From Microvirga sp. TS319 (GTDB taxonomy: Bacteria > Pseudomonadota > Alphaproteobacteria > Rhizobiales > Beijerinckiaceae): a stretch of DNA of 64,000 bases. The position numbers and the translations under genes were made by a program. The stretch is taken from assembly GCF_041276405.1 (NCBI RefSeq), contig NZ_JBGGGT010000002.1, positions 372,001-436,000 on the forward strand. The letters are read 5' to 3'. The notes below the pieces were generated by a model. It had not been told where the DNA came from. It did not search any database and worked only from the letters and a program-made list of their open reading frames with translations. Shown piece after piece: positions 48,293-49,671 of this stretch. Positions within the stretch are counted from its first letter, which is position 1. Every line of letters starts with the position of its first letter.

Positions 48293-49147
48293 TCACGTTC
48301 GCCTCATGGCGACGCATCGGGGATTGTCAGATAGATCGTGTGTCACCTTCAGGATGTCAAGGGCATGGATGGCGGCCAGGCTGCGCAGGGCCTCGGCCTG
48401 ATCGAAGCCGATCTCGACGACCAGGAGCCCGCCGGGGACCAGGAGGCGTTCGGCGTCTCCGAGGAGGACCCGGTAGGGAGCAAGGCCATCCGGACCGCCG
48501 TCGAGAGCCAGCAGCGGGTCGTGCTCGCGCACCTCCCGGTCCAGGGTCGGGATCACCGGCGAGGCGATATAGGGCGGGTTGGAGACGATCAGGTCGAAGC
48601 GGCCGGCGATCGCGTCAGCCCAGTGGGAGAGGGCGAAAAGGCTGCGCTCGCCTACGCCGTTCCTCCAGGCGTTCCCGCGGGCGGTTCTCAGGGCTCCAGG
48701 CGACAGGTCCACGCCGAGGCCGGTGGCCCGGGGCAACTCGTGCAGGAGCGCCACCAGAAGACAGCCCGATCCCGTGCCGAAATCCGCCATCAGCAACGGC
48801 GCCTGCCGGTCGGGGAGCAGTGCGAGGGTGGTCTCCACCACCGTTTCCGTATCCGGGCGCGGCACCAGGGTCTCGGGCGACAGGGCAAAGGGCAGTCCCC
48901 AGAATTCCCGCTCGCCGACGATGCGCGCCACAGGCTCGTGACCGAGGCGGCGGCGGGTCGTGGCCTCCAGGCGCCGGATCTCCTCGGCGGTCAGCGGAAC
49001 CTCGGGACGGGCCACAAGCTCCATCGCCGGAATGCCGAGCACGGACAGGAGCATGAGCCGCGCGTCGAGAGCGGCCGTTTCGAAGCCTGCATCCGAGAGG
49101 GTCCGGCGCAGGTTCTTCAATGCCTGGACGCGGGTGAGGGCGGTCAA
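48293..49147 (-). CDS. prmC: Release-factor glutamine methyltransferase
   Basis: A 284-residue SAM-dependent enzyme that methylates the Gln of the GGQ loop in RF1 and RF2. The N-terminal helical domain precedes ADFGTGSGCLLVALL (SAM loop) and the catalytic SNPPYIA. It overlaps the fosX-like gene by 4 bp and shares the operon with prfA, its substrate's gene. Confidence 0.93.
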   Translation of the reverse strand: MTALTRVQALKNLRRTLSDAGFETAALDARLMLLSVLGIPAMELVARPEVPLTAEEIRRLEATTRRRLGHEPVARIVGEREFWGLPFALSPETLVPRPDTETVVETTLALLPDRQAPLLMADFGTGSGCLLVALLHELPRATGLGVDLSPGALRTARGNAWRNGVGERSLFALSHWADAIAGRFDLIVSNPPYIASPVIPTLDREVREHDPLLALDGGPDGLAPYRVLLGDAERLLVPGGLLVVEIGFDQAEALRSLAAIHALDILKVTHDLSDNPRCVAMRRT

Positions 49148-49671
49148 GCGGCGATGCCCCGGCGATACCGTTCGAGCCGCTCGTCCAGGGTGCCGGTATG
49201 CAGTTCGAACAGGTGATTGTCGTGGTCGTAGAAATAGAGCGAATGGCCCTCGCCATCGACGCGCGGGCGCGACTCGCGCAGCTCCAGCGCATCGTGCGAA
49301 ACAGTAGCCCCGGTTTTTCGCCAGAACGATGCGCTCTTTCTAAGAAGGGAGCATCGGATTGATCCCAGAAGTGGATTCCACTTTTGGGTCCGATGCTCCA
49401 GGCCGAGGCGTTCGATGCGGGCGCGATAATCGCCGATGGCCGTCGCCGGGATCTTGAAGGCGATGTGGTTGTAGCTGCGCGAGGGCAGGCTCTCGCCCTC
49501 CATCACGGCGATCCACTGGCCGCCGACGATGAAGAATTTCTCGCGCGAGAGGGAGAAGGTCTCGTCGCCGGAAGAGTAGATTTCCTGTCCGTCGAGAACG
49601 TGGCTCATGATCGCGCTTATTCGGGCCAGGTCGCTGGTGATGAGCGTGATATGGCTCAGGCCTTCGATCAC
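49144..49671 (-). CDS. fosX: FosX-like fosfomycin hydrolase with in-frame palindromic insertion
   Basis: A 175-residue VOC-fold protein. It matches FosX, which opens the fosfomycin epoxide with water using Mn(II): SHIT with His7, SREKFF with catalytic Glu44, YNHIAF with His69, and HLFELHTGTL with Glu156 (Glu118 without the insert). Residues 93-130 are foreign to the family: they are translated from a 112 bp palindromic element plus a 2 bp duplication. Removing 114 bp between the two CTGGAG copies rejoins ERLGLE to LRESRPRVDGEG, giving 137 residues, the usual length. The gene overlaps prfA and prmC by 4 bp each. Whether the enlarged protein is active is unknown. Confidence 0.85.
   Translation of the reverse strand: MIEGLSHITLITSDLARISAIMSHVLDGQEIYSSGDETFSLSREKFFIVGGQWIAVMEGESLPSRSYNHIAFKIPATAIGDYRARIERLGLEHRTQKWNPLLGSIRCSLLRKSASFWRKTGATVSHDALELRESRPRVDGEGHSLYFYDHDNHLFELHTGTLDERLERYRRGIAA
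49287..49398. repeat. Palindromic element, copy 9, inside the fosX-like CDS
   Basis: B-A unit of 112 bp: GCGCATCGTGCGAAACAGTA ... GAACGATGCGC, spacer, GAGCATCGGATTGATCCC ... GGGTCCGATGCTC. Flanks are CA on each side, within the 7 bp direct repeat GCTCCAG (49281-49287 and 49395-49401). On the minus strand no stop occurs in the gene's frame. Confidence 0.9.

What the first reader, a model, noticed from the sequence alone, without database searches (positions are those of the whole stretch)
49144..49671. Palindromic element translated inside a FosX-type fosfomycin-resistance protein
A 112 bp copy of the dispersed element sits in the coding sequence. With a 2 bp flanking duplication (CA/CA) it adds 114 bp, or 38 codons, in frame, and the strand read contains no stop. 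Deleting one GCTCCAG repeat plus the element rejoins the family sequence exactly and returns the protein to 137 residues. The predicted metal ligands His7, His69 and Glu156 and catalytic Glu44 remain. Insertion of palindromic repeats into protein genes is known in Rickettsia (RPEs); the sequences here are unrelated to what I recall of those. This could be an undescribed protein-inserting repeat in Hyphomicrobiales.
Basis: partly seen in the sequence, partly recalled or inferred. Interest (0 to 1): 0.9.

Follow-up and report, generated by a model that had tools for sequence, protein, structure and literature searches.

The report
Palindromic repeat translated inside FosX
A short dispersed DNA repeat of the soil bacterium Microvirga has, in this strain, landed inside a fosfomycin-resistance-type gene without breaking its reading frame, so the protein would carry 38 extra residues; events of this kind are known from other bacteria, but I found no description of this repeat.

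Summary
A 175-residue FosX-family ORF (49144-49671, minus strand, between prfA and prmC) carries a 114-bp (38-codon) in-frame insertion that none of 28 named Microvirga orthologues has. The insertion is a copy of a dispersed two-hairpin element: core about 110 bp, CTAG at both ends in the consensus. I located 262 non-overlapping copies in fetched parts of this genome. Two more copies lie in frame inside cobB and a GNAT acetyltransferase gene, again only in this genome. The other copies were not found inside genes; 52 of 203 full copies place a gene's stop codon exactly at an element end, and in the two genes tested orthologues end at the same residue. FosX active-site residues are kept, dN/dS (0.16-0.18) lies in the range of other pairs (0.05-0.20), and AlphaFold2 keeps the FosX fold with a low-confidence insert. 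REP/RPE-like repeats inside proteins, and REP termini supplying TAG stops, are already published, so this is a new variant of a known kind: seen only in Microvirga in my samples, CTAG- not GTAG-tagged, no REP transposase found in the genome. Translation and activity are unproven.

The parts
49144..49671 (-). fosX-type ORF with in-frame insertion, 175 aa (GTG start overlaps the prfA stop as GTGA; its stop overlaps the prmC TTG start as TTGA)
49288..49397 (-). core of the palindromic element (110 bp) inside fosX
   Evidence: coordinates read; family ends
49281..49287 (.). direct repeat GCTCCAG, one side; holds the terminal tetranucleotide CCAG (CTGG on the minus strand)
49395..49401 (.). direct repeat GCTCCAG, other side
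49348..49399 (-). hairpin 1 of the element
49286..49335 (-). hairpin 2 of the element
49668..50756 (-). prfA (release factor 1; name recalled from the protein sequence), upstream neighbour
   Evidence: same place in 28 of 28 named Microvirga loci
48293..49147 (-). prmC (release factor methyltransferase; name recalled from the protein sequence), downstream neighbour
1890..2006 (-). another element copy; its end supplies the TAG stop (1890-1892) of the plus-strand ORF 3-1889
60242..60352 (.). another element copy
   Evidence: hairpin 1 also
26147..26217 (.). partial or diverged element copy
36134..36240 (.). partial or diverged element copy
42062..42142 (.). partial or diverged element copy
46805..46901 (.). 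partial or diverged element copy

Best explanation
A non-autonomous palindromic element of Microvirga (two non-identical hairpins in inverted orientation, terminal CTAG tags) inserted into fosX of this lineage at a CTGG word. The net gain is 114 bp and this copy has CTGG instead of CTAG at its ends, so no stop codon arises and the frame continues; FosX is probably made as a 175-residue protein with a floppy 38-residue segment between the helix that starts at residue 76 and the strand at 130. Copies of the family collect at gene ends, where the TAG of a terminal CTAG serves as the neighbour's stop codon. Copies inside genes survive only where they keep the frame and fall in a tolerant loop (fosX, GNAT) or domain linker (cobB). 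Shown: insertion, frame, state private to this genome among those compared, family membership, stop-codon placement. Inferred: preference for CTAG-like words, tolerance by selection, translation, retained activity. The mobilising enzyme is unknown.
For: Insert absent from 28 of 28 named Microvirga orthologues, and no longer match in any of 80 loci. The site reads CTGG in 22 of 28 orthologues (counted by eye from the printout). Same family in frame, and only in this genome, in CobB (34 of 47 other Microvirga genomes have CobB, each matched in two pieces; 29 aligned, none with the insert) and GNAT (15 orthologues aligned, none with the insert). A search of 5.8 billion proteins with each insert region found only this genome's protein. 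fosX dN/dS of the own gene against five neighbours 0.156-0.175; six other pairs 0.050-0.196; changes at columns invariant in the others 1 of 60 (fosX), 0 of 207 (CobB), 1 of 55 (GNAT). H7, E44, H69, E156 invariant in 40 sequences. AlphaFold2 of FosX: block means 87-97 before the insert, below 50 for 96-126, 62-94 after it; best Foldseek hits are FosX structures, TMt 0.91-0.93 in the top five; GNAT model lowest in 70-100. Stop placement: of 70 element ends with a coding frame running in, 55 are in the TAG phase (one third expected, binomial p 1e-14, copies not independent) and 54 stop there. AccA and the window ORF 3-1889 end at the same residue in all 29 orthologues read for each.
Against: No expression data. 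If the insertion is recent, dN/dS says little about present function; three of the six other pairs have lower dN/dS (0.05-0.12) than the own gene's pairs. A frame-keeping insertion could be kept only because fosX overlaps prmC. End tetramers do not covary over 204 copies (561 matches, 561 expected), so a target-site duplication is not shown. CTGG is a common coding word, so its presence at the site is weak evidence. Of the 10 CTAG in the window outside element copies only 2 score as gene stops, which speaks against CTAG simply marking stops. CobB's linker is too diverged to read its target. Only two stop-abutting genes were compared with orthologues.
Confidence: 0.77

Rival explanations
1. The insert has inactivated FosX; the frame is kept only because a frameshift or stop would be polar on the overlapping gene prmC.
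For: GTGA and TTGA overlaps, and prfA-fosX-prmC order in 28 of 28 named Microvirga loci; the insert is predicted disordered and adds strong RNA hairpins to the mRNA.
Against: Only 1 private change at 60 otherwise invariant columns and dN/dS within the range of other pairs; the fold is predicted intact. CobB and GNAT show the same in-frame outcome.
Confidence: 0.25
2. The element is a REPIN/BIME moved by a RAYT transposase, like the GTAG REPs.
For: Two hairpins in inverted orientation, each preceded by a tetranucleotide ending in TAG; TAG stops supplied to flanking ORFs, as described for GTAG REPs (PMC3733652). In one RAYT system a CTAG mutant is still cleaved, less well (PMC8266576, passages).
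Against: Tag is CTAG, GTAG in 2 of 204 left ends; no Y1_Tnp match in this genome, which has the most pattern matches of the 48 (91), and only 6 of 48 Microvirga genomes have one. Past mobilisation by a lost RAYT is not excluded.
Confidence: 0.3
3. Assembly or annotation artefact.
For: Repeats are a classical source of assembly error; no reads were available.
Against: Two contigs, completeness 100; the copy differs from each of the 216 other full copies found (nearest 94.9%), so it is not a misplaced duplicate of one of them; two other genes show the same kind of event.
Confidence: 0.04

Closest known systems
Rickettsia palindromic elements (RPE)
   Same: Palindromic repeats of 100-150 bp inserted in frame in protein genes without destroying the frames (PMC3767692, PMC10969869: passages seen).
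   Different: PMC10969869 gives nearly half of the R. conorii RPEs in ORFs, and PMC3767692 gives RPE-1 to -3 at similar sites in rickettsial orthologues; here 3 of 262 copies, each private to one genome. Sequence relation not tested.
REP/BIME/REPIN repeats with RAYT (TnpAREP)
   Same: Hairpins in inverted pairs preceded by a tetranucleotide; mostly intergenic and near 3' ends; termini often provide TAG stops; some copies inside ORFs (PMC3733652, section 15 read).
   Different: CTAG instead of GTAG, longer non-identical hairpins, no Y1_Tnp found in the genome.
Enterobacterial ERIC/RU elements and other MITEs found in genes
   Same: Small non-autonomous repeats with open frames fused to genes (PMC2759123: passages seen).
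   Different: Other hosts; sequence relation not tested; in the passages seen one example is an addition to the 3' end of a gene.
RIME elements of Rhizobium
   Same: Recalled: about 108 bp with two large palindromes.
   Different: Recalled from memory only; no sequence comparison made.

Membership tests
FosX family (NF000222) | Profile score over NCBI cut-off | tested here: met
   190.1 against 170 bits
FosX family (NF000222) | Metal ligands and catalytic Glu (roles recalled; residues tested) | tested here: met
   H7, E44, H69, E156 invariant in 40 sequences
FosX family (NF000222) | Fosfomycin hydrolysis | not testable with these tools
   no assay
RPE | Palindromic repeat of about 100-150 bp | tested here: met
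   two-hairpin element, core mostly 109-113 bp plus end tags
RPE | In-frame presence in several unrelated protein genes | tested here: met
   fosX, cobB, GNAT
RPE | Large share of copies inside ORFs | tested here: not met
   3 of 262 copies by my method
RPE | Sequence relation to RPE families | not tested
   no RPE sequence compared
REP/REPIN | Hairpins in inverted pairs | tested here: met
   inverted relation of the two 5' arms read by eye
REP/REPIN | 5' GTAG tetranucleotide | tested here: not met
   CTAG at 100 of 204 left and 94 of 204 right ends; GTAG at 2 of 204 left ends
REP/REPIN | RAYT (Y1_Tnp) in the genome | tested here: not met
   0 in own genome, 6 of 48 in genus; the control genomes ring in 5 of 14
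REP/REPIN | Terminus gives TAG stop to flanking ORFs | tested here: met
   54 of 70 incoming coding frames
MITE with target-site duplication | Matching duplication at the two ends | tested here: inconclusive
   end tetramers not correlated over 204 copies; the fosX copy has CTGG on both sides

The most novel reading that the evidence does not exclude
A miniature element that homes to CTAG, a word strongly depleted in this genome, with a taste for C-TAG stop codons, so that insertion re-creates the stop on either side and is harmless ('safe-site' insertion); at near-cognate CTNG words inside genes the same element becomes a translated, disordered spacer of 37-38 residues. It would be moved by an enzyme other than a RAYT.
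Probability: 0.25. Interest if true: 0.7.

Novelty: new variant of a known kind. Interest (0 to 1): 0.5.

Why it matters
It gives a free-living genus in which insertion of selfish palindromes into proteins can be studied, with insert-bearing and insert-free orthologues for three enzymes, and it makes testable why such repeats collect at gene ends: whether the element inserts at stop codons or is merely tolerated there.

Tried and rejected
Coding-potential candidates L302, L312, L195, L372 looked in frame but gave no Pfam match and, by my reading, are antisense frames. In L203, L305, L210, L006, L361 a gene ends at the element and another gene follows; in L207, L333, L027 a gene ends there and the frame beyond looks spurious (my reading). 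L004 has a gene whose frame runs 13 codons into the element before a stop (C-terminal extension, not followed). ORFs L009, L180, L018 (1395-2177), L313, L375 have a Pfam domain on one side only, the element lying towards the 5' end of a stop-to-stop frame. A first codon model from longest ORFs was replaced by one seeded with three known genes; its scores overlap between true and false frames, so weak genes can be missed. Target-site duplication by correlated end tetramers: no signal. Stop-poor core: consensus 1 stop trinucleotide on both strands against means of 9.4 (mononucleotide), 3.8 (dinucleotide, P(<=1) 0.048) and 7.7 (palindrome-keeping) in shuffles; 32 of 204 real copies have none; full copies have 2.6 open frames of six against 1.1 in mononucleotide shuffles. 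Suggestive, not used. Rfam at gathering thresholds: nothing. Papers searched for this element or for protein-inserted palindromes in Microvirga or Rhizobiales; no such description seen in the listings, which cover open-licence full texts only.

Full report
What is there. At 49144-49671 on the minus strand is a 175-residue ORF of the FosX/FosE/FosI family (190.1 bits, cut-off 170). It is the middle gene of prfA-fosX-prmC, with GTGA and TTGA overlaps; both neighbours lie beside fosX in 28 of 28 named Microvirga loci and in none of the other 52 loci (in L063 and L078 prmC lies some 600-800 bp further off). All 28 orthologues (27 of 135-140 residues, one frame of 422, L081) lack a block of 38 residues that the window protein has. 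In one search the listed rows show fosX in 30 of 60 other genomes, each split around the same block; none of the 80 loci kept (of 256 relatives) has a longer match.

The insert. It is a copy of a dispersed element. From 28 copies (alignment A1) and 204 ends the consensus is CTAG, a core mostly of 109-113 bp, CTAG; the core forms two hairpins. The fosX copy folds at -57.9 kcal/mol, z -6.4. Of 34 consensus pairs 3 show a change on both sides, so the structure rests on palindromy, not on covariation. A pattern of hairpin 1 gives 91 matches in this genome (at least 7 sites matched on both strands, by eye) and 0 for the reversed control. In the stretches at hand there are 262 non-overlapping copies of 70 or more model positions, 217 of them full. 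Of 48 Microvirga genomes 41 have the pattern, the window's genome most of all (91; next 74, G015); of 248 other genomes sampled from the order, 8 of them of the same family, none. At 3 mismatches diverged relatives of the element could be missed.

Is FosX alone? No. I looked at the copies for frames open through the element with coding-like flanks and scanned 30 candidate ORFs with Pfam. Two more in-frame insertions are convincing. CobB (L238, 477 residues as read) has about 38 extra residues just before its GATase_3 domain; 34 of 47 other Microvirga genomes have CobB, each matched in two pieces, and 29 aligned orthologues lack the block, one of them (L265) with two other extra residues. A GNAT acetyltransferase (L159, 211 residues) has 37 extra residues in a turn between two strands; 15 aligned orthologues lack it; weaker matches were not assessed. 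The element is read on one strand in fosX and on the other in CobB and GNAT. Searching 5.8 billion proteins with the three insert regions returned only this genome's proteins; that search needs shared five-residue words and a similar total length, so it is not exhaustive. Weakly coding or short genes, and genes without a Pfam family, could have been missed, so 3 of 262 is a lower bound.

Function of the carriers. The four FosX residues usually given as metal ligands and catalytic Glu (roles recalled) are invariant in 40 sequences including this one. dN/dS of the own gene against five neighbours is 0.156-0.175; six other pairs give 0.050, 0.082, 0.118, 0.160, 0.191 and 0.196, so it is within the range but above three of them. 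Changes at otherwise invariant columns: 1 of 60 (most orthologues 0-2, L098 8); CobB 0 of 207, GNAT 1 of 55. AlphaFold2 with 40 sequences keeps the fold (mean pLDDT 78.7; residues 96-126 below 50); the nearest solved structures are FosX of Listeria and Mesorhizobium. This fits a tolerated, floppy insertion. It does not prove that the protein is made or active, and a young insertion would show the same numbers.

Where the element normally sits. Of 396 ends of full copies with enough flank, 70 have a coding frame running into the element; 55 of these are in the phase that reads TAG at the boundary, and 54 end there; 16 do not. One third would be expected (p about 1e-14; copies are related, so this is a guide). 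52 of 203 full copies have a gene stop at one end at least, 4 at both; the stop words are CTAG 40, TTAG 11, ATAG 3, GTAG 2. Is this truncation or insertion at the stop? In the two genes tested it is not truncation. AccA is found in 48 of 48 genomes; in the 30 loci read (own and 29) it ends at the same residue with TAG, TAA or TGA, and one other genome (L391, G009) has a related single palindrome at the very same CTC TAG. The window ORF 3-1889 is found in 38 of 48 genomes and ends at the same residue in the 30 loci read; its own end reads GAG TAG. CTAG is strongly depleted in the window: 15, against 206 by base composition and 51 by a Markov estimate; 5 are at element ends, and of the other 10 only 2 score as gene stops. 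The last figure is against a model in which CTAG simply marks stops; the two at 13599 and 13702 bound a second palindrome family.

Mechanism proposed. The element goes to CTAG-like words. In fosX the net gain is one core plus four bases, 22 of 28 orthologues have CTGG at the site (by eye; CTGG is a common coding word), and both ends read CTGG, as in the nearest other copy (L002). In GNAT the gain is 111 bp, the ends read CTGG and CTCG, and several orthologues have GAG there, which is part of CTCG on the element strand. So one tetranucleotide seems to come from the target and one with the element. That recalls IS200/IS605-type systems, whose cleavage sites are chosen by guide tetranucleotides (passages of PMC8266576), but no Y1 transposase was found here, and end tetramers do not covary over 204 copies. 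The mobiliser stays unknown.

Known or new. PMC3733652 (section 15 read) reports REPs inside ORFs of several species, inserts of 20-30 and up to 43-82 residues, and GTAG termini that supply TAG stops. PMC10969869 and PMC3767692 (passages) describe RPEs; PMC2759123 (passages) enterobacterial elements fused to genes. So the phenomenon is known; this element, its CTAG tag, its restriction to Microvirga in these samples, and the three private insertions are new as far as the searches named under Tried and rejected show.

Noticed in passing
own-genome loci: Element ends coincide with stop codons of neighbouring genes (54 of 70 incoming coding frames stop at the TAG of the boundary).
   Followed up: partly
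L391 (G009), downstream of accA: A related single palindrome sits at the same C-TAG stop codon of accA as the full element in the window's genome.
   Followed up: partly
L081 from 3001: In Microvirga subterranea FosX and PrmC appear as one 422-residue open frame.
   Followed up: no
window 13605-13704, 29765-29868, 33839-33947: A second family of related palindromes (AAGTGGGAACCGGTTTTGCG type) is dispersed in the window.
   Followed up: no
window, whole: CTAG is strongly depleted (15 against 206 by base composition), and a third of the occurrences are at element ends.
   Followed up: partly
L004 (C1:1892503-1892620): A gene's frame runs 13 codons into an element copy before a stop, a possible C-terminal extension.
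   Followed up: no
L088: A record titled Bacillus subtilis SK6B4 carries a fosX-like gene that ranks among alphaproteobacterial ones; possibly a mislabelled assembly.
   Followed up: no
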